A DNA stretch of 33,397 nucleotides, from NCBI GenBank assembly GCA_903844815.1, contig CAIMVD010000194.1, positions 1-33,397 of the forward strand, in the 5' to 3' direction. The number at the start of each line of letters is the position of its first letter. Positions within the stretch are counted from its first letter, which is position 1. The translations under genes and the position numbers were made by a program. Origin of the DNA: an uncultured Bacteroidota bacterium. Lineage in GTDB: Bacteria; Bacteroidota; Bacteroidia; Bacteroidales; VadinHA17. The notes below the pieces were generated by a model. It did no database searches and was not told the DNA's origin. It was given only the letters and a program-made list of their open reading frames with translations. This document shows, piece by piece, positions 4,541 through 33,397 of this stretch.

Positions 4541-4541
4541 A

Positions 4542-8924: not shown

Positions 8925-8928
8925 AACA

Positions 8929-14085: not shown

Positions 14086-14106
14086 TATCTTTAGAATTTA
14101 GAAGTT

Positions 14107-16527
14107 TCAATCATACTGATTATCGTTCAATACCAGCCCCGCTTTAACCGATTCTACTTTATCCGTATAATTCCGAATCAGTTTTAGCATTACATCGATA
14201 TTAAAATTATCAGCTGCAGACTCAAGTTCCTTACCATAACTGGCAATAAAATGGCAGTTATGCTGTTTGCCAAGATCAGCAAGGTTTTTACCGAAATCCC
14301 TTACCTCTCCTATCGGCTGACGCAACTCAAATGACATGCATTTAGTATAGAATTCTCCTTCAAGAGCCCTGATAAGACCATCGGCATCCCTTAAGTCTTC
14401 ATTAAATACCACTTCATCATTTGTATTTAATGGCAAATCCGCAGACTCCGTACTGAAAGCCACATTCTTCATATGGCTATCATTGCTTTTCTGATATTCA
14501 ACATCAGGGATCCTGACAGTGAATTTACTTCCTTTTTCCGGTATTGATTCAACAGAAATTGTTCCTTTCATCAGCTTTACAAGCCGTTGGGTTATAGCAA
14601 GTCCTAATCCGGTACCGCCCTGATTAAGCCGGTTCCGGACCTGTACAAAAGAGTTAAAGATTACCTTTTGAGATCCTTCCGGAATTCCAACTCCGGTGTC
14701 GCTGACCTCAATAATCAGATCGAAAACATCATGTTCGCCATCTTCATCCAATAATTTATGAAGGTTTTCAGAATAAACCTCCAGATGAATTATTCCCTTC
14801 TCTGTAAATTTCACGGCATTATCAAGCAGATTCAATATTACCTGTCTTAACCTGGCTTTGTCGGCATATATAAATCCAATGATATCCGAAGAGGTATCAA
14901 TAATAAAATTGAGCTTCCTTTCGGCAATTTCAGCTGCAAAAATCCTTCTGAATTCCGAAAAGAATTTGTCAGTATTGATAAACTCATACTCCAGGTCCAG
15001 TTTATCAGCTTCAATTTTTGAGAGATCAAGAATATTATTAATCAGAACCATGAGAGCTCTTCCGCTGGTTTTTACCGACTCAATGTAATTTGTTTCAACC
15101 TGCCCTTTAACTAATGATCCGAGCAGTTCGGTGTATCCCAGAATAGCATTCATGGGAGTCCTTATCTCATGGCCCATATTTGCAAGGAACTCGCTCTTGG
15201 CCCTGTTTGCAATTTCAAGCTGCCTTGTTCGTTCCTCAACTCTTTTCTCAAGATAATCATTCATCATATTTATCTCTTCCTCTGCTACTTTCCTGATCGT
15301 AACATCATTGACCAGAACCAGCCTTGATTTTCTTCCTTGAACCTCAATAGGGTGGGAAATCACTTCAACATAAATGACTTTCCCGTTTTTCTTAATGTGC
15401 CTCAACCCCTGAATTTTCGAATAAACCCCATTTGTTTCAGAAAGAAGGGTTTTAAGCTTATCCCTGTCCTCAGGAGGCCTTATTTCAAAAATTGACATAT
15501 TGAGAAATTCCGTTTCAGTGTATCCATAAGTAATCAGGGCAGTATTATTAACTTCAATAAACTTACTGGTCTCTACATCATAAAAGAACATCGGAAGAGG
15601 ATTGTTTTCGAAGAATTTTCTGTATTTCATTTCGCTTTCAGTCAGCTCTGATGTCCTCTTCAATACTTTATCTTCCAGTTCACAATTCAGCTTTCTGAAC
15701 TCGGCAAGCGATTTATTGCGACTTTTGATTCCACCAAGGGCTACTCTCAGAACTACACCCAGCAACATGATCATAATGACGAAATTTATAAGAATAAGCC
15801 ATACAGATTCTGCTTCCATTTTTTTCTCATTGATTCTCTTTTCTTCAATGACATTATGCTGATTAGAGTCGAGCCTTTTGATAATATTCCTGATACTGTC
15901 GGTCAGCATTTTGCCGTATCCTGTATCAAAGAGTCTAAGCGCAGAATCAATTCCTTCAGACTTTTCAGTTTCAATCATCTTATCGGCAAATGAAACCCTT
16001 TCATTTACGTAGGTTCTGAGACGGGTAAAATCACTTGCATCCGAAATGGTTAGCGAAAGCAAACTGTCGAGGGAATGAAGGATTACAGGAATTTGTTCTT
16101 TCGCACTGTAAGCTGGAAGCAGAAATTTATCATCCCTGCTTAACAGATAACCCCTTACTGCTGTCTGAACATCAAGTGTTTTTGACATGAGCTCATTAAG
16201 GCCATGCTGTGTTTCGAGCGAATTTTCAACCTCGTTCTGCACCTCATTCTGAAAATTCATCTGTTTATAAAAATGCAGAGTAACCATAATGACAAGAAAT
16301 GCAGCCACTGCGATTTCAAGATAAAGGCTCTTTTCAATACTCATTTTAAAATAGGCACTTTTATGTGCAAAAAGAGCAATAGCAACAGCCAGTAACATAA
16401 AAACCAGGTAGGGCATGCTTAACATCAAGCCGGCAATCACTATCAATCCAATGACTAAAATGATGAACCCGGTAAACGGAATAAATAATCTTTGAGGCCG
16501 GAAAAATCTGGAATCTTTTTGGTCCAT
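14107..16527 (-). CDS. Membrane CHASE3-PAS sensor histidine kinase with C-terminal HPt-like module
   Basis: About 806 residues from ATG 16527 (a TTG at 16545 is the alternative). Hydrophobic segments lie at about 14-36, 38-54 and 66-86. An extracytoplasmic helical region 95-235 has the CHASE3 hallmark TAVRGYLLSRD, followed by a membrane segment about 238-262. A coiled coil, one PAS domain (about 305-420), HisKA with His453 in GHEIRTPMN, and HATPase (DNAVKFTEKG, DTGVGIPE, GGTGLGLAI) complete the core. There is no receiver domain. The last 85 residues match the C-terminal module of the downstream hybrid kinase (shared FxxRQPxGEV, LGxxH, AADxFNI), which there follows a REC, so this protein may have lost its REC. 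It is the first gene of a four-gene minus-strand operon. Confidence 0.88.
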   Translation of the reverse strand: MDQKDSRFFRPQRLFIPFTGFIILVIGLIVIAGLMLSMPYLVFMLLAVAIALFAHKSAYFKMSIEKSLYLEIAVAAFLVIMVTLHFYKQMNFQNEVQNEVENSLETQHGLNELMSKTLDVQTAVRGYLLSRDDKFLLPAYSAKEQIPVILHSLDSLLSLTISDASDFTRLRTYVNERVSFADKMIETEKSEGIDSALRLFDTGYGKMLTDSIRNIIKRLDSNQHNVIEEKRINEKKMEAESVWLILINFVIMIMLLGVVLRVALGGIKSRNKSLAEFRKLNCELEDKVLKRTSELTESEMKYRKFFENNPLPMFFYDVETSKFIEVNNTALITYGYTETEFLNMSIFEIRPPEDRDKLKTLLSETNGVYSKIQGLRHIKKNGKVIYVEVISHPIEVQGRKSRLVLVNDVTIRKVAEEEINMMNDYLEKRVEERTRQLEIANRAKSEFLANMGHEIRTPMNAILGYTELLGSLVKGQVETNYIESVKTSGRALMVLINNILDLSKIEADKLDLEYEFINTDKFFSEFRRIFAAEIAERKLNFIIDTSSDIIGFIYADKARLRQVILNLLDNAVKFTEKGIIHLEVYSENLHKLLDEDGEHDVFDLIIEVSDTGVGIPEGSQKVIFNSFVQVRNRLNQGGTGLGLAITQRLVKLMKGTISVESIPEKGSKFTVRIPDVEYQKSNDSHMKNVAFSTESADLPLNTNDEVVFNEDLRDADGLIRALEGEFYTKCMSFELRQPIGEVRDFGKNLADLGKQHNCHFIASYGKELESAADNFNIDVMLKLIRNYTDKVESVKAGLVLNDNQYD

Positions 16528-16632
16528 TAATTGACTATTTGACAAGTTTATGTCTGTTCTGATAATTTATAAATGTAATATAATGTTAAAGGATTAAAAC
16601 TGTTTTAAATTTATTACATTTCCTTGAGCCCC

Positions 16633-17017: not shown

Positions 17018-19624
17018 TTAGCCAATTTCCCCTTTTAAATTCTGAAAAGCAATCGCATCATCCTTTAAGCTGACACAAATCTTATCTTCTCTCAGGATCT
17101 GTCCGGCAATTATTGCTCTTGAAAGCTCATTTACTATCTCCTTTTGAATCAGCCTCTTCACCGGACGGGCTCCGAGCTGTGGGTCGAAGCCTCTTTCCGC
17201 AAGCCAGTCAATCACTCCTGCATCGATCAATAACCCGATTCCTCGTGAATCCAGCAAGCTGGTCAGCCCCTTCACCTGTATTTCTGCTATCTCTCTGATC
17301 TGACTGACCGTTAATGGCTTGAACATTACAATCTCATCGATCCTGTTAAGGAATTCGGGATGCATGGTGCTGCGAAGCATCAGAAGGATCTGATCCTTGA
17401 GCTTTTCTTCTTCTTCTACAGGCAAAATATTATCGTATTCGTCCATTTTTTCCCTGATTATCTCCGACCCGAGATTAGAAGTCATTATGATAATGACATT
17501 CCTGAAATTAATCGTACGTCCCTTGTTATCGGTGAGCCTGCCCTCGTCGAGCACCTGAAGGAGCAGATTGAAAACATCGGGATGTGCTTTCTCTATCTCG
17601 TCGAGAAGTACTACCGAATATGGCTTGTGCCGTACTGCTTCAGTCAGCTGGCCTCCTTCATCATAGCCTATATATCCGGGAGGAGCACCTATAAGGCGTG
17701 AAACAGAGTGGCGTTCCTGGTACTCCGACATATCTATCCGGGTAAGTAGATTTTCGTTATTAAAGAGGAACTCTGCCAGAGCCCTTGCGAGCTCGGTTTT
17801 TCCAACTCCCGTTGTCCCAAAGAAGATGAATGATCCGACGGGCTTTTTCTCATCGCTCAGCCCTGCTCTCGACCTTCTCACGGCATCTGCCACAGCCCTG
17901 ATGGCTTCATCCTGGCCAACCACCCGTTTATGCAGTACCTCCTCGAGCTTCAGGAGCTTTTCTTTTTCGCTTTCAAGCATTCGTGCCACCGGAATTCCAG
18001 TCCACTTCGACACCACGTCAGCGATGTCTTCAGCCCTTACATCTTCCCTGATCAAAGCCCCTCCCGAACGCTTGCTGTCAATTTCATCCTTCAATGCAGC
18101 TATCTCTTTTTCGAGACCGGCGATTGTACCATACCTGAGTTCGGCAACCTTTCCATAGTCTCCGGAACGCTCTGCCTGATCAGCCTCAAGCCTGTACGAT
18201 TCTACAAGCTCCTTCTTCTCCTGCATCTTTTCTATCATATTCTTTTCAGTCACCCATGCAGCCTTTATCCCGTTTCGCTTATCGACAAGTGTCGAGATCT
18301 CACGCGCAAGGACTTGTTCTTTTTCGGTATCGCCATCGCGTCGGAGGGCTTCCCGTTCAATTTCATAGCGTGCAATAGTTCTTTCAAGCTCATCAAGCTC
18401 TTCAGGAACTGAGTTCATCTGAAGCCTGAGATGCGATGCTGCTTCATCCATTAAGTCGATGGCCTTATCCGGCAGAAACCTGTCGGTAATATACCTGTAC
18501 GACAAGTCAACTGCGGCGATTATTGCCTCATCCCTGATAATAACCTTATGATGGGTCTCATATCTTTCTCTCAATCCCCGGAGTATCGATACTGAATCGG
18601 TCCTGTCTGGTTCCTCAACCATAACAACCTGAAATCTTCTTTCAAGTGCTTTATCCTTCTCGAAGTACTTTTGGTATTCGTTAAGGGTTGTGGCGCCAAT
18701 GGCTCTGAGCTCTCCCCTGGCAAGCGCCGGTTTAAGGATGTTGGCAGCATCCATAGCCCCTTCCGATTTCCCGGCGCCGACAAGTGTATGGATCTCATCG
18801 ATAAACAGAACTATCTCGCCATTGGATGTTACTACTTCATTTATCACCGACTTGAGCCGTTCCTCGAACTCGCCCTTGTATTTGGCACCGGCAATAAGGG
18901 CTCCCATGTCGAGGGAGAATATCACCTTCGATCTGAGGTCTTCCGGAACGTCTCCCCTGACGATACGATGAGCAAGACCTTCGGCAATTGCCGTTTTACC
19001 GACACCCGGTTCACCAATGAGCAGTGGGTTATTCTTCGACCGCCGGGTGAGTATCTGCAGCAGTCTCCTTATCTCGTCATCGCGTCCGATAACAGGATCG
19101 AGCTTTCCCGACCTGGCCATCTCATTAAGGTTCATGGCATACCGCTCAAGCGAATTATAGGTGTCTTCAGCACTCTGTGAATTAATTGTTGAGCCCTTCC
19201 TGATATCGGCAATTGCTGCTTTAAGGTCTTTTATGGTAATGCCCCTGTCCTTCATAAGGGTTGAAACCTGATCACCGGTATCGAGAATGCCAAGAAGAAT
19301 ATGTTCGACAGAGACAAACTTATCGTTCATGCCGGATGCCTGGACAGCTGCTTTCCTGAGAGCTTCTGAGGCTTTAGCCGAGAAGTATGATTCTGAACCG
19401 GAAACTTTAGGAAAAGTCCCTAAAATATTATCTATGGATTTTGTGAATGATGCAAGGTCAACACCCATCTTTCCAAAGAGGAAGCTCACAATGTTGTCCG
19501 ATTCGCTGATAATACCCTTGATAAGGTGTGCAGGCTCAACAGCCTGATGACCTCCGGCAGATGCGATGTTCAATGCCTGATTAACTGATTCCTGTGCCTT
19601 AACAGTAAAATTATTCAGATTCAT
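17018..19624 (-). CDS. clpB: ClpB protein disaggregase (Hsp100 AAA+ ATPase)
   Basis: 868 residues, the usual ClpB length. ClpB threads proteins out of aggregates with the DnaK system. A Clp N-terminal repeat domain occupies residues 1-145. AAA1 has Walker A GEPGVGKT (204-211) and Walker B LFIDEIH. The coiled-coil middle domain spans about 400-530. AAA2 has Walker A GTTGVGKT (about 602-609) and Walker B VVLLDEIEKAHPD. A C-terminal small domain has LGARPVKRLIQ. I chose ATG 19624, which gives the family start MNLNNFTVKAQE; the longer frame begins at TTG 19672 with an ill-fitting extension. No CIRCE-like operator was recognised upstream. The gene is monocistronic, flanked on both sides by repeat-bearing intergenic DNA. 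Confidence 0.96.
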   Translation of the reverse strand: MNLNNFTVKAQESVNQALNIASAGGHQAVEPAHLIKGIISESDNIVSFLFGKMGVDLASFTKSIDNILGTFPKVSGSESYFSAKASEALRKAAVQASGMNDKFVSVEHILLGILDTGDQVSTLMKDRGITIKDLKAAIADIRKGSTINSQSAEDTYNSLERYAMNLNEMARSGKLDPVIGRDDEIRRLLQILTRRSKNNPLLIGEPGVGKTAIAEGLAHRIVRGDVPEDLRSKVIFSLDMGALIAGAKYKGEFEERLKSVINEVVTSNGEIVLFIDEIHTLVGAGKSEGAMDAANILKPALARGELRAIGATTLNEYQKYFEKDKALERRFQVVMVEEPDRTDSVSILRGLRERYETHHKVIIRDEAIIAAVDLSYRYITDRFLPDKAIDLMDEAASHLRLQMNSVPEELDELERTIARYEIEREALRRDGDTEKEQVLAREISTLVDKRNGIKAAWVTEKNMIEKMQEKKELVESYRLEADQAERSGDYGKVAELRYGTIAGLEKEIAALKDEIDSKRSGGALIREDVRAEDIADVVSKWTGIPVARMLESEKEKLLKLEEVLHKRVVGQDEAIRAVADAVRRSRAGLSDEKKPVGSFIFFGTTGVGKTELARALAEFLFNNENLLTRIDMSEYQERHSVSRLIGAPPGYIGYDEGGQLTEAVRHKPYSVVLLDEIEKAHPDVFNLLLQVLDEGRLTDNKGRTINFRNVIIIMTSNLGSEIIREKMDEYDNILPVEEEEKLKDQILLMLRSTMHPEFLNRIDEIVMFKPLTVSQIREIAEIQVKGLTSLLDSRGIGLLIDAGVIDWLAERGFDPQLGARPVKRLIQKEIVNELSRAIIAGQILREDKICVSLKDDAIAFQNLKGEIG

Positions 19625-19731
19625 ATAATTCTGGTTTTGTATCAGGAAGGGCAAATTCCCTGCCATCACCAAAAAACAGAAAGGAATGCAATTTCTGACA
19701 TATCAAAATCACTAATTACTGCAATATTGAC

Positions 19732-21421: not shown

Positions 21422-24400
21422 ATGAACCCAATTTATCTAAAATCCCCGGGACGGATGAGCTTCGCTATTTCCGTTAAAAGGTTCTTTATACTAGCCCTGT
21501 TCCTTGCCTCGCAGTTTGCTATTGCATCCGCACAAAAACAAAAGGATGTTGAGGTCGTTTTACACTGCATTGAATACATCGGCAACGATAAATTCGTTGC
21601 AAATTTTGGATATAATAACCCTAATAAAACTGAAGTGGATGTCCCCGAAACAAACAGTACAGTTGTTTTAAACGGGGGTGAATCGAAATCCAAAGCCATA
21701 AATAAATTTAAACCAGGACTTCAGTCATATGTCTTTAAAAGAGAATTCACAAGCAAAGACAGGGTAGAATGGAAAGTTATTTTGCCAAACGGGAGTACCA
21801 AGACTATAACAGCAAACATTAAGTCAAATCATTGTTCCAATTCAGGTAATATAGTGCCTTACTATCCACCCCCTGCAAACGGAAAACTCCTGAACTCAAT
21901 AATTGGTCCTGAACTTACGTCGCTCTATACTACTTTTATTGCCACCAACACTGCGGTATCGAACTATATCTTCCAGATCAGGGATTCAAAAGTGCTTATT
22001 GAGATTAAAACAAAAACGGGATATTACAATACCCTGCTGGGAATTCTTACCGGTACTCTTGGGTTTGAACCCGACCCAGCCAGTCAATATGTTGATCCCG
22101 CAAACAACCTGATAACCGGTTGGATTCCAATTGTCAATCTTTTAACTATTAACACTTATCCCACCTATGCTGAATTTGCCAGGCCGGTATTTCCCTCGGT
22201 GCTTAATAACAGCGGACTTGCACTTGATAAAGGGGATTATTCAATGCATTCCGATTTTGTAAGAAAGGGATATGATTTAAGTGGAAATGGTGTTAAAATA
22301 GGGGTCTTATCTGATAGTTACAACTCCAAAGGGAAAGCCGATATTGACGTTCTGAACGGGGATCTTCCCGGGAAAGATGACCCTGGCCGCATGGTCCAGG
22401 TAGTAAAAGACTATCCATATTCCTTTGCCCAGTTATCGGACGAGGGAAGAGGAATGCTTCAGATTGTTCATGATATTGCCCCGGGTGCCAATCTTGCTTT
22501 CCGCACCGGATATATCTCACCCGTCGACATGGCTGCAGGCATTGTTGAACTTGCCGACAACGGATGCAATATTATTGTTGACGATATCAATTATATTACA
22601 GAGCCATTCTTCAGCGACGGAACAATTTCAAATGCCGTTGATAAAGTCGTAGCCAGGGGTGTGACATACTTCTCAGCAGCAGGCAACTTTGGAAAAAAAT
22701 CCTATTCCGCCACATTCAAGCCTTCAGCAGTTCAGGGTCCTGCCGGACTTACCGGCGCTTTTCATGATTTTGGAACCGGAGATATTTATCAGAAGATAAG
22801 CCTTGCAGAAGGCAATTACGTAATTGTCATGCAATGGGCCGATGCTTCCAATGCTCTTAATGATTATGATATTTACCTTGCAAGTGACAATAGAACAACG
22901 CTTTTCGGTTTTAACCGCAATAATACCGGCACAGCCCCTATAGAAATATTACCATTCACGGTAAAGCCAGGCGGAGCCAGTACAAACATTTTAATAACCA
23001 GGGCATCAGGTACTCAGAATCTGCAGGTAAAGTATGTCGTTTTCAGGGGCGACCTTGCCATACTTGAATATAATACAGGAACTTCAACAATCGTGGGACA
23101 GGCAAATGCACTGGGAGCAATTACTGTAGGGGCGGTATTATACAGCAATACTCCATATTACGGAGTCAATCCTCCGACAATTGCCTCTTTTTCATCTGCC
23201 GGAGGAACTCCTGTTAACGGAATAGTAAGGTCAAAACCTGACCTTACCGCTCCTAACGGGGTAAATACAACTGTTCCCCTGAGTACTTTTGATCTGGATG
23301 GTGACGGTAATTTTGAATTCTATGGCACTTCTGCCGCTGCTCCACATGCAGCAGCCGTTGCAGCACTGTTAACAGAAGCAAAAAAGAAATATGAGAACAC
23401 TGTATTGGCACCGGATGCAGCAAGACAACTATTGAGAACGACTTCGCTCAACATGGATGCGGCCGGTTTTGATTATAATACCGGTTACGGATTCATCCAG
23501 GCCGATGCCGCAATTCAGACATTTGCATCTCCGAAACCCGAAATCACAGAATTAATAGTGCCTGTTAACATAACGCCAGGATCTATTCCCTTCACAGTCA
23601 CCGTAAAGGGAAACTATCTTACAAAAGACACCAAAATAACGTTGAATAAGCAGGTATTGACCACAACGATAGTGAGCTCTACTGAAGCCCAGGCTCAGGT
23701 TACTGCTTTTCCCGGAAATCCTGCAGTTCAGGCTTATACCCCGCCAAAATCAAGCAGCAATCTTGACGGAGGATATTCTGATCCTTTCTATTTCTTCAAC
23801 GTTATTAAAAAGAAAATCACAATAACCGCCGGCAGTTTTACCAGGAAATTCGGAACACCTTTTCCCGGTTTCACTTACACAATGAAACTTGACGGAGTTC
23901 CAATAACTGCTGCTGACCTGCCTGCCGAAGAAAGGTCAAGAATAACCAGTGTGCTTTTCGACCCTGCCTCCCTCCCTTCCTCTGCAAAAGTGGGTACTTA
24001 CCTCATCACTCCCTATCATAATCCGGCAATCGGGTCAATTACCAACCAAACAGACCCTCAATACGCACTTGATAATTCACTTTCAATCAAATACAACTTT
24101 GAGTATATAAGCGGTACGGTGGCAACAGATAAAATATCCATCAAAATAACTCCGGATAATATAATCAAGCCTTACGGGAGTAACCTTTCTGCTTCAGATC
24201 TTAGTTTCAAATATGAGGCTGACGTGACAGGATTAACTATTACAGCGCAGGAAAAAGCTGCGATAGAACAGCTTGCGATGACCGAACATACCCAGGCATT
24301 GACTGACGGTATTCTCCTCATTAACGGAACAACCGTTTTTAACGGCATACCTGTAATAAACGGAATTCCTGTTATTGACGGACTTCCTCTGATCGATGGT

Positions 24401-26614
24401 ACTGCAACCGTAAATGGCATTGATGTAAAAGTAATAAACGGGATTACATATATAAATAACGTGCAGGTTCCGAATGGGATTCCTGTGATTAACGGCATTC
24501 CTGTGATTAACGGAATACCGGTGATAAACGGATCGAATATAATTTCCGGTTCAGCACTCTTCAATGGAGTTACAATAGGGATAGTTAACGGATATGTAGT
24601 TAAAGTAGGCGATCAGCCCTTGCCTTCAGGCATACATCTCACTGACGGAATACCGGTGATTAATGGAACTGCAACTGTAAATAATGTAGTTGTGACGGTA
24701 AACTCAGGAAAGACCTATATTAACGGAACGGCTGTAACTGATTTGAATACCGTTGTCAGCGGAATACCTGTTATAAATGGATTTCCACTAGTGAGCTCAG
24801 CAAATATCGGACAAGGCACAGGAGTCTTTAACAGCGCCGAAGTCTCGTTCAGTAACGGGATTCCCGTAATTAACGGGATCCCTGTTATAAACGGAATTCC
24901 GGTAATCAACGGAATAGGCCTTATAAATTCAAACAATCAGGTTGAGTTTGTAGACCTCGATAACAGGACCATGCTTGCCAGTTCAACGGCCCTCTCCAAC
25001 TCACTGTCGTCAATAAACGGATCTCCCCTTTCAAGCGGAATTCCTGTAATTAACGGGATCCAGGGAAACATTCCCGACCAATCACTCCTGGTAGTGGCAA
25101 ATCATCAGCAGCAGGATGGCAGTATCCTGGATTATCAGGGAAATGTTGTTGCAAACGGCATTCCTGTAATTAACGGAGTTGCACTTTCAAATGGGATCCC
25201 TGTAATCAACGGGTTGAATACCGTAATAAACGGAATTCCTGTCATTAACGGAATTCCAGTAATAAATGGGATTCCTGTTATTAACGGCATACCTGTAATA
25301 AACAGCAGTACAATTAACGGATCAAGCAACAGCGGTTCAATACTAATCTACGATAACGGTGACTTTGTAGCAGGTCATAACATCAGTTTTAATCCCATTT
25401 GCTTTGTAACAGGAACGTCAGCCGGCACACACTGGATCATACCGGGCGCATTTCTTTCTGAGAATTTCAATGTATCATACGGTCTTGGAATACTTACTGT
25501 TGAGCCTGCACCTTTAAAAATTAAAATTGAAAATTCGTCGAAGGTTTATGGGTCGGCTGATCCTGAATTCAAATACACTATTGTTGAAGGCCGGCTCTTT
25601 GGTACCGATGCAATAACAGGCAAAGCCCTAAGGAAGGAAGGTGAACAAACCGGCTCCTATACAATCGGCAAGGGTACCCTTACAGCTGGTTCCTCCTACA
25701 AAACATCGTTTATTGACGGTACTTTTACAATTGAAAAAGCAGCCCTCACTGTAAAAGCAAATGACCAGGTTATTCTTGCCGGCGATCCCCTGCCGAAGAT
25801 AACCTTTACAATTACCGGATTTAAATTCACAGATACCCAGGAAAGTGTATTTGGCATCAATGGCCCCCTTTACCAGATTACCCCCTTATGCTCAGGGAAG
25901 GCAGGCGCTTATCAGATAATACCAACTGTCGTTGTATTAGCAAATTATACTGTCATTCCACAACCGGGGACTCTTTACGTCAATCCTTCGGGCAGCGGTG
26001 CAAAAGCCGTCAGACCAATACTTAAATGTGTTGAATTGCTTACTGTTCCTGTTTCAGGATTTAAATACAAGGCGCACTTCAGGTATGAAAATAAGAATTC
26101 AACAAGCGTGTATATTCCCGTTGGGGTAAATAACCTGATTTCAGGAAAAGGGAAATTCAGCATTTTAAACCAGCCAACGTTGTTCTTACCTTCTGGAGGT
26201 ACTTTTGATGTTCTGTTCGATGGTCTTAAGATTTCATGGATGGTTACAAGTATTGAAAGCGGGAAAAAGACCTCTGTTGGTTCTGACGCAAGTTCAACCT
26301 CAAGCAAGTGTTCAGCCAAACAAACATCAGCCATTTCCTCCGAAATAGTTACTGATAAACCTTCAATTGAGCTGATACCCGTTGTCTATCCGGTACCTGC
26401 AGTCGACAAAGTAACCGTCGAATCTGAAATTATAACGGAAAACTCAAAGATCACCCTTCTCGATATGAAGGGGAGTACTTTCCCTGTAACAATAACAGCT
26501 CAGTATAAGAATCATCTTGAGCTGGATATTAATAATCTGCCGGCCGGGGCCTTTATCGTTGTCGTAAATAATAATAATCAGGTGAAACAGTTCAGAATTT
26601 TAAAGACCAGGTAA
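21422..26614 (+). CDS. Giant secreted S8/S53-like peptidase with MBG domains, NGIPVI hexapeptide array and T9SS sorting domain
   Basis: 1730 residues. By inspection: signal peptide ending near AIASAQ (residue 38); a beta-rich domain with a Cys pair about 42-140; a subtilisin/sedolisin-fold peptidase about 270-700 with Asp298 (VLSDS), Glu341 (DEGR) where subtilisins have His, Asn422 (AAGN) and Ser637 (GTSAAAPH); an IPT-like domain 703-793; an MBG domain 795-902; a second MBG domain 905-1365 split by a hexapeptide array at about 962-1305; MBG domains at 1366-1441 and 1442-1525; a second copy of the N-terminal beta-rich domain at about 1530-1635; and a type A T9SS sorting domain at 1650-1730 (VYPVPAVDKV, then LPAGAFIVVV). 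It is therefore expected to cross the outer membrane by T9SS and be released or attached. Its paralog starts at 29335. The substrate is unknown. Confidence 0.85.
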   Translation: MNPIYLKSPGRMSFAISVKRFFILALFLASQFAIASAQKQKDVEVVLHCIEYIGNDKFVANFGYNNPNKTEVDVPETNSTVVLNGGESKSKAINKFKPGLQSYVFKREFTSKDRVEWKVILPNGSTKTITANIKSNHCSNSGNIVPYYPPPANGKLLNSIIGPELTSLYTTFIATNTAVSNYIFQIRDSKVLIEIKTKTGYYNTLLGILTGTLGFEPDPASQYVDPANNLITGWIPIVNLLTINTYPTYAEFARPVFPSVLNNSGLALDKGDYSMHSDFVRKGYDLSGNGVKIGVLSDSYNSKGKADIDVLNGDLPGKDDPGRMVQVVKDYPYSFAQLSDEGRGMLQIVHDIAPGANLAFRTGYISPVDMAAGIVELADNGCNIIVDDINYITEPFFSDGTISNAVDKVVARGVTYFSAAGNFGKKSYSATFKPSAVQGPAGLTGAFHDFGTGDIYQKISLAEGNYVIVMQWADASNALNDYDIYLASDNRTTLFGFNRNNTGTAPIEILPFTVKPGGASTNILITRASGTQNLQVKYVVFRGDLAILEYNTGTSTIVGQANALGAITVGAVLYSNTPYYGVNPPTIASFSSAGGTPVNGIVRSKPDLTAPNGVNTTVPLSTFDLDGDGNFEFYGTSAAAPHAAAVAALLTEAKKKYENTVLAPDAARQLLRTTSLNMDAAGFDYNTGYGFIQADAAIQTFASPKPEITELIVPVNITPGSIPFTVTVKGNYLTKDTKITLNKQVLTTTIVSSTEAQAQVTAFPGNPAVQAYTPPKSSSNLDGGYSDPFYFFNVIKKKITITAGSFTRKFGTPFPGFTYTMKLDGVPITAADLPAEERSRITSVLFDPASLPSSAKVGTYLITPYHNPAIGSITNQTDPQYALDNSLSIKYNFEYISGTVATDKISIKITPDNIIKPYGSNLSASDLSFKYEADVTGLTITAQEKAAIEQLAMTEHTQALTDGILLINGTTVFNGIPVINGIPVIDGLPLIDGTATVNGIDVKVINGITYINNVQVPNGIPVINGIPVINGIPVINGSNIISGSALFNGVTIGIVNGYVVKVGDQPLPSGIHLTDGIPVINGTATVNNVVVTVNSGKTYINGTAVTDLNTVVSGIPVINGFPLVSSANIGQGTGVFNSAEVSFSNGIPVINGIPVINGIPVINGIGLINSNNQVEFVDLDNRTMLASSTALSNSLSSINGSPLSSGIPVINGIQGNIPDQSLLVVANHQQQDGSILDYQGNVVANGIPVINGVALSNGIPVINGLNTVINGIPVINGIPVINGIPVINGIPVINSSTINGSSNSGSILIYDNGDFVAGHNISFNPICFVTGTSAGTHWIIPGAFLSENFNVSYGLGILTVEPAPLKIKIENSSKVYGSADPEFKYTIVEGRLFGTDAITGKALRKEGEQTGSYTIGKGTLTAGSSYKTSFIDGTFTIEKAALTVKANDQVILAGDPLPKITFTITGFKFTDTQESVFGINGPLYQITPLCSGKAGAYQIIPTVVVLANYTVIPQPGTLYVNPSGSGAKAVRPILKCVELLTVPVSGFKYKAHFRYENKNSTSVYIPVGVNNLISGKGKFSILNQPTLFLPSGGTFDVLFDGLKISWMVTSIESGKKTSVGSDASSTSSKCSAKQTSAISSEIVTDKPSIELIPVVYPVPAVDKVTVESEIITENSKITLLDMKGSTFPVTITAQYKNHLELDINNLPAGAFIVVVNNNNQVKQFRILKTR
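24308..25330 (+). repeat. Coding hexapeptide array N-G-I-P-V-I (first paralog)
   Basis: Runs of one to five 18-base units encode NGIPVI, for example at 24478-24531, 24847-24915 and 25228-25305. Between runs are spacers of other sequence, such as GTATVNG-V-V-NG-TYIN-like segments and the KGNIPD-type segment near 25060. Synonymous codons differ between neighbouring units (ATT, ATA and ATC for Ile; GTA, GTT and GTG for Val), so the protein sequence is conserved more than the DNA. The period of six suggests a beta-solenoid, but I do not recognise a named domain. Confidence 0.9.
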
Positions 26615-26910: not shown

Positions 26911-29085
26911 ATGCAAAACGCAAAAATACTGTTGTTTATACTTCTGTTTATATCACCGGTCACCGGATATTCACAGAAACATGATGTCGACCAGATGATC
27001 AAAAGTCTTAATGATCTGAAAGATGACACTTTAAAGGTCAATACTCTTATCGAAATCTGCGACAGTCTTTATGTCACAAAACCTGAGGCGACAGTTGGTT
27101 ATGCAGCCAGTGCTCTTGAAATAGCACAAAAGCTGAATTTTGGCAAAGGAGAGGCATTCGCTTTAAAATATATAGGGATGGGGCACTATACCCAGGCAGA
27201 GTATGCAATAGCAATCAATTACTTCCAGCGGGCGCTTGAAATATTTGAAAGACTTGGATTTAAAAAGGGCATCTCAAACATGCTCAATAGTATCGGAGTT
27301 ATCTACAACAATGAAGGCGAAGATGCCAAAGCCCTTGATAACTACATCAGGTCATTAAGGATCTCAGAAGAGATGAATGACTCTGTGCTAATAATGACAA
27401 CACTGATTAACATTGGTCTCATCTACTCAAAAAAAGAGACAACAAGCAATAAGGCTGAGGAGTACTACCTGCAGGCTCTCGGAATAGGAGAAAAAATAGG
27501 TTATAAGAGCGCAACCGGTACAGTTACAATTAACCTCGGTGAGATCCTTTATAATAAGGGTGACTTCGGAGGAGCCCTTAAATATTTTGAAAAAGCACTG
27601 AAGATTTACAGGGAAACAAATGACGGTAACATTCCTTATGCCCTGCTTAGCATAGGCAAGGTATATGCAAAGCGGAACGACTACCAGAATTCTGTCAGAT
27701 ACATGGAAGAGGCACTTAAAACGGCACGGCAGAATAATGCAAAACTTGAGGCAGGAAAGGCAATGTTAGGGTTGGGAATGACCTATCTTCAAAAGGGAGA
27801 AATCCAGCAAGCGCTTGTGTATTTCATTCAGGCTGAACAAATCACCACCGAAATAGGTGCTAAATATGAGCAGAGCGAAACCTATAAATACATGGCCACC
27901 GCCTATTCAGAGACTGGTGATTTCCAGAATGCTTATCACTCACAATTAAAGGAATCGCAACTGAAAGATTCCATCTTCTCTGAAACCCACCAGATGCAGA
28001 TCAATCAGCTCCGTGTAAGGTATGAAATTGAATCGATGCTCAAGGAAAACGAAATCCTTAAACGCGACGCAAAACTGACTGAAGCCAAAAGCAGAAGCCA
28101 GATGATAATCATTTTTTTCCTTATTGCAGGGTTTGTCTCAATATCCATTTTCATGCTTCTTATTGCCAGGGCTAATAACCTGAAAAAGAAGGCTAATGAA
28201 GAATTAAACAGGACCAACAATGACCTGAAAAATGCACTCGACATAGTTAATCATCAGAAAAAACAGATCGAAAAGGCACACGATGAGATTACTGCCAGCA
28301 TAAACTATGCAAAATATATCCAATCATCTGTTTTGCCAAAACCGGAGCAGATTGAAGAGTGCCTCGGCGATCATTTTATCCTTTACAGGCCAAAAGAAAT
28401 AGTAAGCGGCGATTTTTACTGGGTTTCTGAAACAGAGGATAAAACCGTGGTTGTTTCGGCAGACTGCACGGGTCACGGAGTGCCCGGCGCATTTATGAGC
28501 ATGCTTGGGATAACTTTACTTAATGAAATCATCAATAAGGATTCGGTAACAAATCCCGGTATCATTCTCGACCGGCTTAGAAAGGAGGTTACCGATTCGT
28601 TAAAACAAAAAGGAGAAAGATGGGAACAAAAAGACGGAATGGACCTGGCACTGTGCACAATAGACCGGAAAAACATGAAGCTTCAGTTCGCAGGAGCTAT
28701 AAATCCATTGTATTTCATACGGGAATCAGATTCTGAAATAACCGGAATAATTCACAGTGAATCAAACGATTCCGGCAAATTAATTGAAATTAAAGGCGAT
28801 CACATGCCTATTGGAATATTTGATGAAATGGATAGTTTTGCGTATCACGAGATTGACCTCCACAAAGGTGATACTTTTTACATGTTTACAGATGGCTTCC
28901 CTGACCAGTTCGGAGGACCGGATCATAAGAAATTCAGCCACCGCCGTTTCAGGGAGCATTTGGTTAAAACCAAAAGCGAATCAATGTCCGATCAGAAAGT
29001 AAAACTAGAAAACGCGCTGAACGAGTGGATGGGTAAAAACGGACAGACTGATGATATTTCTGTTATTGGATTCAGGATTAATTAA
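26911..29085 (+). CDS. TPR-SpoIIE (PP2C-like) membrane phosphatase
   Basis: 724 residues. Signal peptide about 1-22 (LLFILLFISPVTGYSQ). TPR repeats fill about 40-370, with units such as YFQRALEIFERLG and YFEKALKIYRETN. A transmembrane segment lies at about 396-418, a coiled coil at 420-470, and a SpoIIE/PP2C-type serine phosphatase domain at about 480-724 with SGDFYW, SADCTGHGVPGAFMS, FTDGFPDQFGG and a closing TDDIS. The acidic metal-binding residues are present. The layout puts the TPRs in the periplasm and the phosphatase in the cytoplasm. In Bacteroidota such proteins probably act on anti-sigma-factor antagonists or other phosphoproteins; no partner gene is adjacent. It lies between two giant paralogs, about 296 and 249 bases from them, each with its own upstream region. 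Confidence 0.9.
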   Translation: MQNAKILLFILLFISPVTGYSQKHDVDQMIKSLNDLKDDTLKVNTLIEICDSLYVTKPEATVGYAASALEIAQKLNFGKGEAFALKYIGMGHYTQAEYAIAINYFQRALEIFERLGFKKGISNMLNSIGVIYNNEGEDAKALDNYIRSLRISEEMNDSVLIMTTLINIGLIYSKKETTSNKAEEYYLQALGIGEKIGYKSATGTVTINLGEILYNKGDFGGALKYFEKALKIYRETNDGNIPYALLSIGKVYAKRNDYQNSVRYMEEALKTARQNNAKLEAGKAMLGLGMTYLQKGEIQQALVYFIQAEQITTEIGAKYEQSETYKYMATAYSETGDFQNAYHSQLKESQLKDSIFSETHQMQINQLRVRYEIESMLKENEILKRDAKLTEAKSRSQMIIIFFLIAGFVSISIFMLLIARANNLKKKANEELNRTNNDLKNALDIVNHQKKQIEKAHDEITASINYAKYIQSSVLPKPEQIEECLGDHFILYRPKEIVSGDFYWVSETEDKTVVVSADCTGHGVPGAFMSMLGITLLNEIINKDSVTNPGIILDRLRKEVTDSLKQKGERWEQKDGMDLALCTIDRKNMKLQFAGAINPLYFIRESDSEITGIIHSESNDSGKLIEIKGDHMPIGIFDEMDSFAYHEIDLHKGDTFYMFTDGFPDQFGGPDHKKFSHRRFREHLVKTKSESMSDQKVKLENALNEWMGKNGQTDDISVIGFRIN

Positions 29086-29334: not shown

Positions 29335-32300
29335 ATGAAATCGACTGTTTTAAAACTCGTTAACGGGAGAGATGTAGCACTTTACCAAAAAGGAATACTT
29401 ATTTCAGCCCTGTTTATAAATATTACAATAGCGACTTCTTTCGGGCAGGTTGAAAAGGAAGTTGAGATTACACTTGAAGGAATTGAATCGATTGGCAATG
29501 GCAAATTTGCTGCAAGTTTCAGCTATTACAATCCTAACATATCAGAAGTAACGGTTTCAGATACAGGAAACTCTGTGACCCATCGCGACCATCACACAAA
29601 AGAAATCAAGTCGAAAAAGAGTAAGCCGTCTACAAGATTCAAGTCGGGAAAGCAGGCTTTTGCCTTCAAACAGGTCTTCTCAGGTGATGATGAAGTTACC
29701 TGGAAAGTTGTTTTACCAAATGGAGTAATAAAAGAAGTTTCGGCAAGTAAATACTCAAAAAAATGTTCTATTCTCCCATCCTATACTCCCCCGGCCAGCG
29801 GCAAACTCGCAACCTCTATCTTAGGTCCTGAACTGACAGCTGTTTATGAAAGCTTTTCAACCGACGGTTCCGTAGGTTATGATAATATTTTCCTGATACG
29901 GGACTCAAAGATTTTTATTGAAATCAAGGCAAGTGCGGGTAACTACGATAAATTACTTGACAAGCTATCTTCCCGGGAAGCAGTTACCAACGACTCATCC
30001 ATTCCCGGCAAAAATCTGATTACGTGCTGGATTCCAATAAGTAATCTTATAAACCTTGAAGGCTATGCAAAATATATTGAATATATCAGACCCGTATTTC
30101 CTTCGATAATAAACAATAGCGGACGTGCACTTGATTTCGGAGATTATGCTGTTCACTCTGATGTCGCCAGGACAGGGTACGGAATAACCGGAAAGGGAAT
30201 TAAAATCGGAGTCCTGTCCGACAGCTACAATTCAAAAGGAGCAGCCTTTGCCGATATAAAGAACGGAGACCTCCCGGGACGAGGAAATATAGACGGTAAC
30301 CTGCAGGAAGTTGAAGTTTTAAAGGAATACCCCTACCCTTCCTCATACTTATCTGACGAAGGACGGGCGATGCTTCAGATCGTCCATGATGTCGCACCAG
30401 GTGCTAACCTCGCGTTCAGAACCGGCTACCTGAGCCCAGCCGATATGGCAGCGGGAATTATTGAAATGGCCGACAAAGGCTGTAATTTAATTGTTGATGA
30501 TATCACACACATAACAGAACCGTTTTTCAGTGATGGTGTAATTTCTCAGGCCGTAAACAGTGTTACAGCCAGGGGTGTAGCTTACTTCTCTTCTGCCGGA
30601 AACTATGGAAAGAAATCCTATTCAGCAACCTTTGCTCCCTCAGACATTGCCTTACCAGCAGGCATTACCGGGTCTGCACACGCTTTCGGAAGCGGCGACA
30701 TATTTCAGAACGTCAGTCTTAAGGATGGAAAATATTTAATCGTCATGCAATGGATAGATGCCGCCAATGCTAAAAATGACTTCGATATATATATTGCTAA
30801 TGAGGATGGGACCAGTCTTATCGGATACAACCGCAATAACATTGGCACCGAACCTATAGAGATATTGCCATTTACAGTTACAAACGGCGGAGCCACGACG
30901 AATATAATGATCAACAGGGCATCGGGCACCGAAAATCCTGAGGTCAAGTATGTAGTTTTCCAGGGAGATATGGTCATTAATGAATATAATACGGGCAATT
31001 CAACAATTGTTGGCCAGGCTAACTCGCTAGGTGCCATCACTGTAGGTGCAGTGAAATACGACAATACTCCACATTTCGGAGTTCCGGTACCGACTATTGC
31101 ATCTTTTTCGTCGATTGGAGGAACCCTGGTTAACGGCGTTGAAAGGAAAAAACCCGACGTAACCGGCCCCAATGGAGTGAACAGTACAGTTAAGTTAAGT
31201 CCGCATGACCTTGATCGGGACGGCAATTTCGAGTTTTACGGAACATCTGCTTCAGCCACACACGTTGCTTCCGTATCAGCCCTGATAATGGAAGCAAAAA
31301 AGAAGTTCGAAAACCAATCTATGAATCCGGAACAGATACGACAACTTCTTCAGTCAACCTCAATTGATATGGATCAGCCGGGATTTGACCCTATCTCCGG
31401 TTCCGGTTTCATTCAAACGGATGCCGCCATATTCACATTTGCATCCCCGTTACCGATGATCTCGGAGCTCATTTTACCATTAGGATCGACTCCCGGAAAA
31501 TCTGCTTTCAGAATTACTGTGAAAGGTAACAACTTTAATACAGAAACGAGTATTGCCCTTAATAAGGAGATTTTGAAAACCACCTTTGTGAACTCTACTG
31601 AAGTTATTGTTACAATACCTGTGTTTTCAGGTGATCCGGCCGTGCAGGCTTTCAATCCTCCAAAATCGGCCAGCCAGCTCGATGGCGGCTATTCCGAGCC
31701 TTTCTACTTCTCCAAACCTTACAAAAACAAGCTTAATATTGCTGCAGGTAATGTAACAAAAAAATACGGAGAAGCTATTCCTGTATTCGCATATACGATT
31801 ACTAATGATGGAGTTCCTGTAAATACAACTGAGCTTACTTCTGCAGAAATTAAAAGGATATCGGGTGTTCGCTTCAAGACTACTGCATCTTCAACATGCA
31901 CAGGCGGAAATTATATTATCAGACCATATTTCGAACCTGCTATAGGATCTGTTACCGACAAAACAAATCCTCTTTATGCTGTCGACAGCCTATTGCTTAG
32001 AAAATTCAAAGTGTTGTTTACTGAAGGATTTCTCTCGGTCGACAAGATCCCAATAAAGATAACTCCCAACAATCTGACAAAAACATATGGTCAAAACCTC
32101 ACGGCCGCAGATGTATCTTACAAATATGAGCCCGACCTTACAGGATTGAAAATCACCGAAGATCAGAAAGACTCAATTATCGTAGCAGTTCAGGCAGAAC
32201 ATATTCAGTCGTTGGATGACGGTGTTCTTCTTATTAAAGGAACTACTTTTTATTCGGGAATACCGATAATAAACGGCATCCCGATTATTAACGGGATAAC

Positions 32301-33397
32301 CATGATCAGTGGAACTGCAATCGTCAATGGCCAGGAAGTCAAAGTTGATGATGGACATACATATATTAATGGGAGCCCGATTACCAGGGGGATTCCTATT
32401 ATAAATGGTATTCCGATAATAAACGGGTTCCCTGTTGTAAGTGGTGCCGACATCGTCTCAGGCAAGGCAATCCTTAACGGAACAGAAATCAGAATAACTA
32501 AAGGGGTTGTTGTTAAAGCTGGTGAGGAAACTTTGGAAAATGGGATTCCCATCATTAATGGTATCCCGATAATAAATGGAACGGCTTTGATCAATAACAC
32601 TCTGGTTAAAGTTGAGAACGGGGTGACTTATATTAATGATGTAGCTATTACTCAACTTAATACTATTATTAACGGAATTCCAATAATTAACGGGATACCT
32701 ATAATTAACTCGCAAAACTTTGTTGATGGCACGGGAATATTCAATGAGCTTGAAGTACACCTTTTGAATGGAATACCGATTATCAACGGAATTCCAATTA
32801 TTAATGGGATACCGATTATTAACGGAATACCGATTATAAATGGATTATCCCTGACAAATCCGGCAAATGAAAATGAAGTTGTCAATCTTGAGAACATTAG
32901 CATAATGGCAAGTGAGACAGCCCTCACGAATTCACTTTCGGCTGTAAACGGAATTCCTATAATAAATGGTATTCCCATAATCAACGGTATGAAGGGAAAT
33001 ATCCCTGACGAATCACTTATCACTGCATTAAACCGTCAGCATCCTGATGGAACCGTCACCGATTATAATGGAAATATTCTTAAGCAAGGCATCCCGATAA
33101 TAAACGGTGTTGCGGTGATCAATGGAATTCCAATAATAAATAGTACTCCTTTAATTAACGGGATTCCAATCATAAACGGGATTCCAATCATAAATGGGAT
33201 TCCAATTATTAATGGGATACCAATTATTAACGGGATAGCCGGAACTAACGGGAAAACGGTTATAAATGGCTTCTCCGCTACAACCGGAATACCAATTATA
33301 AATGGATTCTCCATTACCAACGGAATACCTGTTTTAAATGGATTCTCCATTACCAACGGAATACCAATTACAAATGGATCCTCACTTACCAGCGGAA
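29335..33397 (+). CDS. Second giant S8/S53-like peptidase with NGIPII hexapeptide array (partial, runs off right edge)
   Basis: Open from ATG 29335 to the window end, 1354 codons with no stop. It is a paralog of the gene at 21422 in the same domain order: signal peptide ending near ATSFGQ (about residue 38), beta-rich domain to about 145, peptidase about 270-700 with Asp296 (VLSDS), Glu342 (DEGR), Asn423 (SAGN) and Ser638 (GTSASATH), IPT-like domain, MBG domain, then an MBG domain entered by a hexapeptide array from about residue 963. The preferred unit here is NGIPII, not NGIPVI. The N-terminal beta-rich domain lacks the first of the two cysteines found in the paralog. The array is longer and ends, within the window, in a 12-residue variant repeat. 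The remaining MBG domains and T9SS tail are expected downstream but are not visible. Confidence 0.87.
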   Translation, partial: MKSTVLKLVNGRDVALYQKGILISALFINITIATSFGQVEKEVEITLEGIESIGNGKFAASFSYYNPNISEVTVSDTGNSVTHRDHHTKEIKSKKSKPSTRFKSGKQAFAFKQVFSGDDEVTWKVVLPNGVIKEVSASKYSKKCSILPSYTPPASGKLATSILGPELTAVYESFSTDGSVGYDNIFLIRDSKIFIEIKASAGNYDKLLDKLSSREAVTNDSSIPGKNLITCWIPISNLINLEGYAKYIEYIRPVFPSIINNSGRALDFGDYAVHSDVARTGYGITGKGIKIGVLSDSYNSKGAAFADIKNGDLPGRGNIDGNLQEVEVLKEYPYPSSYLSDEGRAMLQIVHDVAPGANLAFRTGYLSPADMAAGIIEMADKGCNLIVDDITHITEPFFSDGVISQAVNSVTARGVAYFSSAGNYGKKSYSATFAPSDIALPAGITGSAHAFGSGDIFQNVSLKDGKYLIVMQWIDAANAKNDFDIYIANEDGTSLIGYNRNNIGTEPIEILPFTVTNGGATTNIMINRASGTENPEVKYVVFQGDMVINEYNTGNSTIVGQANSLGAITVGAVKYDNTPHFGVPVPTIASFSSIGGTLVNGVERKKPDVTGPNGVNSTVKLSPHDLDRDGNFEFYGTSASATHVASVSALIMEAKKKFENQSMNPEQIRQLLQSTSIDMDQPGFDPISGSGFIQTDAAIFTFASPLPMISELILPLGSTPGKSAFRITVKGNNFNTETSIALNKEILKTTFVNSTEVIVTIPVFSGDPAVQAFNPPKSASQLDGGYSEPFYFSKPYKNKLNIAAGNVTKKYGEAIPVFAYTITNDGVPVNTTELTSAEIKRISGVRFKTTASSTCTGGNYIIRPYFEPAIGSVTDKTNPLYAVDSLLLRKFKVLFTEGFLSVDKIPIKITPNNLTKTYGQNLTAADVSYKYEPDLTGLKITEDQKDSIIVAVQAEHIQSLDDGVLLIKGTTFYSGIPIINGIPIINGITMISGTAIVNGQEVKVDDGHTYINGSPITRGIPIINGIPIINGFPVVSGADIVSGKAILNGTEIRITKGVVVKAGEETLENGIPIINGIPIINGTALINNTLVKVENGVTYINDVAITQLNTIINGIPIINGIPIINSQNFVDGTGIFNELEVHLLNGIPIINGIPIINGIPIINGIPIINGLSLTNPANENEVVNLENISIMASETALTNSLSAVNGIPIINGIPIINGMKGNIPDESLITALNRQHPDGTVTDYNGNILKQGIPIINGVAVINGIPIINSTPLINGIPIINGIPIINGIPIINGIPIINGIAGTNGKTVINGFSATTGIPIINGFSITNGIPVLNGFSITNGIPITNGSSLTSG
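32224..33397 (+). repeat. Coding hexapeptide array N-G-I-P-I-I (second paralog), including recent 18- and 36-base duplications
   Basis: This is the counterpart of 24308-25330. Runs of NGIPII alternate with spacers in the same order as in the first paralog. The longest runs lie at 32768-32843 and 33158-33237. At 33158-33193 two adjacent 18-base units (gggattccaatcataaac type) differ by a single base. At about 33266-33372 a 36-base unit containing ggattctccattaccaac is repeated, encoding NGFSITNGIP(V/I)-type 12-mers. The array continues past the window. Confidence 0.9.

What the first reader, a model, noticed from the sequence alone, without database searches (positions are those of the whole stretch)
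24308..25330. NGIPVI hexapeptide array inserted inside an MBG domain: an apparently undescribed repeat module
About 340 residues of the first giant protein are built on a strict six-residue unit, N-G-I-P-V-I. Before the array the sequence reads like the first half of an MBG domain (ITPDNIIKPYGSNLSASDL, then LTITAQEK). After it comes a normal MBG ending (FNVSYGLGILTVEPA). The array therefore seems to be a large insertion in one loop of an MBG fold. I know of no named family with this unit. A regular hexad with alternating hydrophobic positions fits a beta-solenoid stacked out from the MBG stalk, which could be a binding or adhesion surface carried by an exported peptidase. The sequence pattern is direct; the fold and role are inference.
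Basis: partly seen in the sequence, partly recalled or inferred. Interest (0 to 1): 0.85.

Follow-up and report, generated by a model that had tools for sequence, protein, structure and literature searches.

The report
Repeated peptide code with paired receptor
A large exported bacterial enzyme carries many copies of one six-letter peptide whose spelling is mostly uniform within a protein but differs from lineage to lineage, and the neighbouring gene looks like its receptor, so this may be an undescribed peptide-signalling system in Bacteroidota.

Summary
The repeat is real, but 'strict' overstates it: 14 exact and 5 near NGIPVI copies fill 114 of 320 residues, split by conserved spacers. It sits in a degenerate MBG-like domain of a T9SS-exported S8-type peptidase. 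Orthologues in other families hold, at the same place, a different, mostly uniform unit: NGIPII, NGISLV, SLRGIV, NPRVIT, NGKRSV, even 7-mers (NGSRGIA) and 8-mers (NGKAVTIV). Units are conserved as protein while codons are scrambled. A gene for an extracytoplasmic TPR domain, a transmembrane helix and a cyclase or SpoIIE output is linked to the array gene in 26 of 27 array genomes (one probable, one 1.7 kb off) and to 0 of 8 array-less homologues. Old paralogues in one genome share their unit in 5 of 6 genomes. The sixth has two units, each with its own receptor: sensors 44% identical, outputs 82%. Best reading: a multi-copy peptide signal with a cognate TPR receptor. Partnership is well supported; peptide release is inferred.

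The parts
21422..26614 (+). Array protein W1 (P0001, 1730 aa): export signal-like start, S8-type peptidase with DEGR motif, MBG-like domains, hexad array, T9SS type A sorting tail
22985..23491 (+). Peptidase_S8 match (residues 522-690), with GTSAAAPH serine motif at 23324-23347; a DEGRGM motif lies upstream at 22439-22456
24128..24256 (+). First half of the MBG-like domain that holds the array (DKISIKITP...ITAQEK)
   Evidence: by eye against the next MBG_2 domain; the HMM did not align this half
24341..25300 (+). NGIPVI array: 14 exact and 5 near copies in clusters with conserved spacers
25328..25513 (+). Second half of the MBG-like domain (SGSILIYD...GILTVEPAP)
   Evidence: matches C-terminal MBG_2 profile below cut-off
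25514..25729 (+). Ordinary MBG_2 domain (residues 1365-1436)
26384..26587 (+). T9SS type A sorting tail (residues 1655-1722)
26911..29085 (+). P0003, proposed receptor: signal peptide-like start, TPR superhelix, one transmembrane segment, SpoIIE phosphatase domain
26998..28020 (+). TPR sensor region of P0003 (about residues 30-370)
   Evidence: (pLDDT 88)
28435..29079 (+). SpoIIE output domain of P0003 (residues 509-723)
29335..33397 (+). Array protein W2 (P0002), runs off the window; full length 1797 aa across a 141-base contig overlap
32248..33397 (+). NGIPII array of W2 (cut by the window end)

Best explanation
The array is a multi-copy short peptide ligand, carried in an exported protease-like protein, whose sequence is read by the TPR protein encoded next to it. 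Shown: lineage-specific, mostly uniform units in a conserved scaffold; constraint at the protein level; near-universal linkage to a TPR-TM-output transducer that is absent beside array-less homologues; the same unit in old paralogues of 5 of 6 genomes; two units with two receptors in one genome. Inferred: the units bind the concave TPR groove; short peptides (about one unit) are cut out of the array, perhaps by the protein's own or a co-exported protease during or after T9SS export, reach the periplasmic TPR domain and switch cyclic-nucleotide synthesis or a phosphatase, as a cell-density or self-recognition signal.
For: Units differ between lineages but are mostly uniform within each protein. 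Measured on the unit copies of the first sequence, unit residues are 0.86-1.00 identical in 10 pairs compared (0.98 or more in 6), spacers 0.58-0.87 (3 of the 10 are same-genome A/B paralogues, and W2/C2 are tandem paralogues). G008/G015: 150 of 150 unit residues identical, unit codons the same in 55 of 150, near the 0.33-0.34 expected at random. The neighbour is TPR + SpoIIE (2 of 2 scanned, window genome) or TPR + Guanylate_cyc (6 of 6 scanned elsewhere). It is linked in 26 of 27 array genomes, counting G203 (1.7 kb away) and G954 (probable contig join), and in 0 of 8 array-less homologues. In the window genus the pair stays together although its orientation differs. Six genomes hold old A and B paralogues (AU test rejects same-genome sisterhood in 6 of 6, p 7e-6 to 0.043), yet the true pairing of units ranks 1 of 720; five genomes carry the signal and G881 scores 0. 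G881 has an SGRVVT gene with one receptor and an NPRVIT gene with another, plus an NPRVIT copy with none seen; these receptors are 44% identical in TPR and 82% in output. Among 22 receptors outside the window genus 225 of 231 pairs have TPR less conserved than output. Unit distance follows TPR distance after correcting for output and peptidase (partial r 0.32, p 0.008, 16 receptors). The TPR model (pLDDT 88) resembles peptide-binding LGN, Rap and NprR. Lys86, Asn167 and Asn208 are the same in 26 of 26.
Against: No peptide has been seen and no binding tested. The partial Mantel weakens to p 0.033 without two distant receptors and to p 0.084 with one RGTALV genome only; it left out the 7-/8-mer and window-genus receptors. 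L065 and L068 share NGRPLV although their TPRs are only 39% identical. Concave TPR positions are not more variable than other exposed ones and show no clear charge match to the units. Asn at position 6 is also a general TPR consensus residue (recalled). In G984 the shared unit came by transfer of the whole module between loci (spacers 0.85 against peptidase 0.52), and in G954 and G837 it may have; that leaves G689 and G882 as matches without clearly raised spacers. G812 has an array but no linked TPR gene, and five second copies have none seen. Several genomes hold further, mostly more distant TPR-cyclase or cyclase homologues (7 matches in G881, 13 in G735). Units lie head to tail without an obvious cleavage site. 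Protease activity is doubtful in part: the expected Asp motif reads Asn in at least 6 of 34 sequences.
Confidence: 0.5

Rival explanations
1. The intact array, not a released peptide, is the ligand: the TPR transducer senses its cognate T9SS substrate in the periplasm, for example as an export or crowding sensor.
For: Same linkage and unit/receptor pattern as the best explanation; the TPR sensor should face the periplasm by its signal-like start and transmembrane segment (segment near residue 400 over threshold in 21 of 24); no visible cleavage sites between units.
Against: Many copies of one short unit, conserved at nearly every residue, are more than one docking site needs, though avidity could explain it.
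Confidence: 0.22
2. Structural ladder: the units stack in a beta-solenoid or meander and must match each other to pack; the domain is an adhesin or stalk.
For: Regular strand-plus-NG-turn pattern; the low-confidence model shows EEEE-- repeats; self-matching would also give uniform units that differ between lineages.
Against: Does not explain the linked TPR transducer or its absence beside array-less homologues, nor matching units in separate loci of genomes whose spacers are not clearly raised (G689, G882). Unit length shifts between 6, 7 and 8. In L071, L072 and L075 the RGTALV units are isolated rather than in tandem.
Confidence: 0.17
3. The array is a multi-site substrate or inhibitor of the protein's own protease domain, and the units track protease specificity.
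For: Array and peptidase go together in the window genus: the peptidase was found in 5 of 60 genomes at E 1e-20, the same five that have the array.
Against: A and B paralogues with peptidases only 52-68% identical share units in 5 genomes, and the TPR gene is left unexplained. Homologous peptidases without arrays exist.
Confidence: 0.08
4. Neutral repeat turnover: slippage and gene conversion keep copies alike without function.
For: Array module transfer in G984; adjacent tandem copies share somewhat more codons (0.43-0.47) than the within-gene average (0.36-0.39); 7 of 20 arrays show a modest excess of shared codons (P below 0.05).
Against: Copies are nearly all distinct in DNA (13 of 14, 16 of 17, 25 of 25, 21 of 23, 11 of 11, 25 of 25, 24 of 25). 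Copy number and positions are unchanged (25 of 25) between G008 and G015 while codons are near random. That is selection on the protein, not recent copying.
Confidence: 0.03

Closest known systems
RRNPPA quorum sensing (Rap-Phr, NprR, PlcR, AimR; PMC9765709 passages, PMC11343458 abstract and introduction)
   Same: Adjacent signal and TPR-receptor genes; peptides of 5-10 residues, sometimes 1-4 copies per propeptide; high receptor specificity; TPR superhelix with a peptide groove. The P0003 model matches Rap and NprR structures.
   Different: RRNPPA: Bacillota, propeptides of 50-120 aa, intracellular receptors acting on DNA or protein targets. Here: Bacteroidota, T9SS-tailed proteins with open frames of 1666-5141 aa and about 4 to 25 exact copies, membrane receptors with extracytoplasmic TPR and cyclase or SpoIIE output.
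Yeast alpha-factor and other multi-copy signalling-peptide polyproteins (PMC5850478, abstract)
   Same: Many related or identical peptides in one exported precursor; repeat number and concerted evolution as themes.
   Different: Eukaryotic; Kex2 sites between repeats and a GPCR receptor (both recalled); no protease in the same chain (recalled).
MBG_2 domain (PF18676) and other repeat stalks of T9SS proteins
   Same: Flanking scaffold and neighbouring domains.
   Different: The array itself has no Pfam or NCBIfam model that accounts for it.
Hexapeptide left-handed beta-helix (recalled)
   Same: Six-residue period.
   Different: Its known pattern does not allow 7- and 8-residue units (units; pattern recalled); no hexapeptide family among the Pfam hits.

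Membership tests
RRNPPA quorum-sensing system | Signal gene adjacent to a TPR receptor gene | tested here: met
   26 of 27 array genomes linked (one 1.7 kb away, one by a probable contig join); 0 of 8 array-less homologues
RRNPPA quorum-sensing system | TPR superhelix with peptide-binding groove | tested here: inconclusive
   TPR fold predicted at pLDDT 88 and matches LGN, Rap and NprR; binding not tested
RRNPPA quorum-sensing system | Intracellular receptor acting on DNA or protein targets | tested here: not met
   Transmembrane segment near residue 400 in 21 of 24, signal-like start in P0003, Guanylate_cyc or SpoIIE output in 8 of 8 scanned
RRNPPA quorum-sensing system | Small secreted propeptide (50-120 aa) | tested here: not met
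   Open frames of 1666-5141 aa
RRNPPA quorum-sensing system | Mature peptide released and re-imported | not testable with these tools
   needs peptidomics
MBG_2 (PF18676) | 72-position profile matched above gathering score by the array-holding domain | tested here: not met
   Joined halves score 14.7 and 20.2 bits against a cut-off of 25; the next domain at 1365-1436 does match in full
T9SS cargo | Type A C-terminal sorting domain | tested here: met
   PF18962 33.7 bits (cut-off 27), TIGR04183 28.5 bits (cut-off 23) in P0001
S8 subtilase | Peptidase_S8 profile match | tested here: met
   PF00082 58.2 bits (cut-off 21.8) in P0001, over profile positions 144-288 only
S8 subtilase | Complete Asp-His-Ser triad | tested here: inconclusive
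   Regex GTSA..H found in 29 of 34; regex [IV]S[DN][SA]Y found in 16 of 34, with Asn in 6 of these; DEGR stands where the HG motif is expected (recalled alignment)
Beta-solenoid repeat | Confident solenoid fold | tested here: inconclusive
   pLDDT 44

The most novel reading that the evidence does not exclude
A previously undescribed bacterial language: giant T9SS-exported polyproteins that carry their own protease domain and many copies of a lineage-specific 6-8 residue pheromone, read by membrane TPR receptors with interchangeable second-messenger outputs, whose code switches in step in precursor and receptor while the DNA copies are kept scrambled.
Probability: 0.35. Interest if true: 0.95.

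Novelty: categorically new. Interest (0 to 1): 0.85.

Why it matters
Peptide quorum sensing with TPR receptors is known from Bacillota; I found none described for Bacteroidota with this architecture (searches, of a library without preprints and most subscription papers). If right, each genome's peptide can be read directly from its array, so ligand and receptor can be synthesised and tested pair by pair. Even without the signalling reading, a repeat whose residues change together across up to 25 scattered copies, in length too, while codons are randomised, is a clean natural case for studying how repeated protein code evolves.

Tried and rejected
Named repeat family: Pfam and NCBIfam gave only sub-threshold or summed weak hits for the array. 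Pam3_gp18 exceeds its cut-off for P0002 and for the array segments, but no stretch passes alone; rejected as a repetition artefact.

Chance or assembly artefact: rejected, because the array is found in other genomes at the aligned place.

DNA-level homogenisation as the whole cause: rejected for the window arrays from codon diversity; accepted for the module transfer in G984.

Faster synonymous turnover in units than elsewhere: seen in G008/G015 (0.37 against 0.48-0.53 expected) and W2/C2 (0.37 against 0.45-0.47), but not in C2/G085, L062/L063 or L072/L075; not claimed.

Hypervariable concave TPR surface: not found (entropy 1.96 concave, 2.02 other exposed). Charge complementarity: not found. 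Array structure: AlphaFold uninformative. Plasmids: two distant peptidase hits only. Exact (NGIP[VIM]I)x2 in genome contigs: one record, which appears to be G085 of the window genus; that tool may leave out records very near the window genome.

The A/B split is only moderately supported in the tree with outgroups (95/64, drawn open). I rely on the AU tests; these were run on pairs named after the tree was seen, which the tool warns about. Rows left out: G013 and L077 (fragments) and the L121 copy were not in the trees; the two array-less rows were dropped.

Full report
1. What is there. P0001 (21422-26614, +, 1730 aa) has an export signal-like start, an S8-type peptidase match, MBG_2 and a T9SS type A tail. 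NGIPVI occurs 14 times exactly and 5 times nearly between 24341 and 25300, in exact clusters of 2, 3, 3, 1, 1 and 4; these copies fill 114 of 320 residues, and 2000 shuffles of the segment never gave a 6-mer more than 4 times. The rest are spacers that align with orthologues. The second array protein, cut by the window end, continues on contig C2 through a 141-base overlap (1797 aa) and is followed there by a third, 1801 aa. W1 has NGIPVI; W2 and the C2 protein have NGIPII.

2. Distribution. In the window genus 5 of 62 genomes have the array, and the peptidase part was found in 5 of 60 genomes searched, the same five. Two exact adjacent NGIP[VIM]I units occur in one record of the public genome set, which appears to be G085 of that genus. 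Searching with the peptidase part found matches in 17 of 395 genomes of the phylum at E 1e-30, many of them without arrays, 5 of 201 of one family at 1e-60 and 19 of 395 of the class at 1e-90.

3. The unit changes, the scaffold stays. Orthologues carry a mostly uniform but different unit at the same place: NGISLV (G008, G015), NGIP[IL]V (G013), NGIPLV, NGLSVI, SLRGIV, NA[KR][AQ]L[IV], NARAII, N[GA]RAIV, NGR[PA]LV, N[GA][KR]GLV, NQKGLV, N[AG]KAIV, N[AG]R[VA]LV, NAKVVT, SGRVVT, NPRVIT, NGKRSV, NGHPLA, RGTALV in mostly isolated copies, the 7-mer NGSRGIA and the 8-mers NGRAVSIV, NGRAV[AP]IV and NGKAVTIV. With units masked, the spacers of the families outside the window genus align as one scaffold. 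Arrays are not always perfect: G013 and L051 mix related units, and L051 has no exact 6-mer three times.

4. Selection acts on the protein. Copies within a gene are nearly all different in DNA (13 of 14, 16 of 17, 25 of 25, 21 of 23, 11 of 11, 25 of 25, 24 of 25). Within-gene codon identity is close to random draws of the gene's own codons, with an excess (P below 0.05) in 7 of 20 arrays. Between G008 and G015 all 25 units sit at the same positions with 150 of 150 residues identical, against 0.73-0.74 in spacers and 0.76-0.79 in the peptidase, while unit codons agree in 55 of 150. In the other pairs unit identity is 0.86-1.00 and spacer identity 0.58-0.87.

5. The neighbour. P0003 (26911-29085) has a signal-like start, TPRs, a transmembrane segment near residue 400 and a SpoIIE domain. 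A homologue is linked to the array gene in all 5 genus genomes, downstream in three and divergent in two. Of 20 regions from other families, 17 have it adjacent, one (G203) 1.7 kb away, one (G954) ends at a contig end, and one (G812) lacks it. G984 and G937 have it, a second locus of G881 has it, and G954 has it on contig C86 after what looks like the tail of the array gene (the join is unproven). Total: 26 of 27 genomes with a visible array. One more (G824) could not be judged, its contig being too short. Five second copies have none in the stretch seen: L105 (upstream side not covered), L106, L107 and L108 (contig ends near), L109. Eight homologous peptidases without arrays have none (0 of 8, array absence checked; L117 is a 6.7 kb contig). 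Six of six neighbours scanned outside the genus have a Guanylate_cyc output; the other receptors were judged by blastp, reading and a motif only, and that of G203 has no verified output.

6. Units follow the genome more than the gene tree. The peptidase tree separates an A group (8 rows) from the rest (95/64, open). Six genomes have an A and a B copy; same-genome sisterhood is rejected in 6 of 6 (p 7e-6, 1e-4, 0.003, 0.006, 0.023, 0.043). Yet the true pairing of units ranks 1 of 720. Five genomes carry this; the sixth, G881 (SGRVVT and NPRVIT, alike only in RV[VI]T), scores 0 in that measure. Module transfer explains G984 (spacers 0.85, peptidase 0.52) and possibly G954 and G837 (0.68, 0.62). 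Spacers are 0.47 in G882 and 0.51 in G689, against a mean of 0.44 (0.33-0.62) in 82 other A-B pairs, so in these two the unit matches without a clear sign of recent module transfer.

7. Two codes, two receptors. G881 has SGRVVT with a receptor on C7, NPRVIT with a receptor on C58, and another NPRVIT copy on C121 with none seen. The C58 peptidase is 83% identical to that of C121 and 51-65% to the 12 other copies compared. The two receptors are 44% identical in the TPR part and 82% in the output. G881 holds five further, weaker or partial matches to the receptor query (7 in all); two of these were read (L126, L127) and have no array gene beside them, three were not read. G008 and G015, with the same unit, have TPR 82% and output 75%. 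In G954 and G984, where both copies carry the same unit, only one receptor homologue matched across its TPR part. G882, whose two copies differ at unit position 2, has two close receptors, the second at a contig end with no array gene in view. Over 22 receptors outside the window genus TPR identity averages 0.42 and output 0.58, with TPR lower in 225 of 231 pairs. The partial Mantel of unit on TPR distance given output and peptidase is 0.32 (p 0.008) for 16 hexad receptors, 0.26 (p 0.033) without two distant ones, and 0.25 (p 0.084) with one RGTALV genome only.

8. Receptor structure. AlphaFold on P0003 with the L023 neighbour gave pLDDT 88 and a TPR superhelix. The best PDB matches are LGN complexes; Rap with its pheromones and NprR follow, and sequence search gives designed TPRs, LGN, kinesin light chain and RapH, RapI and RapJ. 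Lys86, Asn167 and Asn208 are conserved in 26 of 26 and Asn123 in 24 of 26, though Asn at position 6 is common in TPRs in general (recalled). Glu211 is Ser in exactly the three 8-mer genomes, which are close relatives, so perhaps one event. Concave positions were not more variable than other exposed ones and showed no charge match.

9. Reading. The linkage, the lineage-specific unit, its sharing between loci and the sensor/output divergence fit a ligand-receptor pair with the unit as the code. That the unit is released as a peptide is inference. It works like RRNPPA signalling, whose propeptides can hold several pheromone copies (PMC11343458, abstract and introduction; PMC9765709, passages), but it fails that family's tested features (receptor location, output, propeptide size). 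I saw no report of it: (search listings) and passages of PMC10352776. The library lacks most subscription papers and all preprints.

10. Limits. Nearly all genomes compared are unnamed here, so species cannot be given; L023 is an uncultured Bacteroidetes MAG. Protease activity, export, cleavage and binding are untested. The Asp motif expected in the protease reads Asn in at least 6 of 34 sequences, so some copies may be inactive.

Noticed in passing
window 26911-29085; L085-L104: The TPR transducers keep their sensor but differ in output (SpoIIE phosphatase in the window genome, Guanylate_cyc in 6 of 6 scanned elsewhere), an apparent output swap.
   Followed up: partly
L074 and L084 (G984): The array module looks recently transferred between two old paralogues: spacers 85% identical, peptidases 52%.
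   Followed up: yes
window 24341-25300; L021 4743-6110: The antisense strand of the hexad DNA stays open and reads IIGIPL-like repeats, probably because the unit DNA is nearly palindromic (GGAATTCC).
   Followed up: no
window 23531-23746 (P0001 residues 704-775): NCBIfam NF058597 'choice-of-anchor Z repeating domain' matches above its cut-off just after the peptidase.
   Followed up: no
window 2649-5156, minus strand: Three genes that look by eye like HisF, HisH and an N-acetyl sugar amidotransferase, a pattern of surface-sugar synthesis; not searched.
   Followed up: no
window 7710-16545, minus strand: Three sensor kinase-type genes in a row next to a ClpB-like gene (17018-19672), judged by eye only.
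   Followed up: no
G882:C220:32157-33635 (L122): A second close TPR-cyclase receptor cut by the contig end; an array partner would be expected just beyond.
   Followed up: partly
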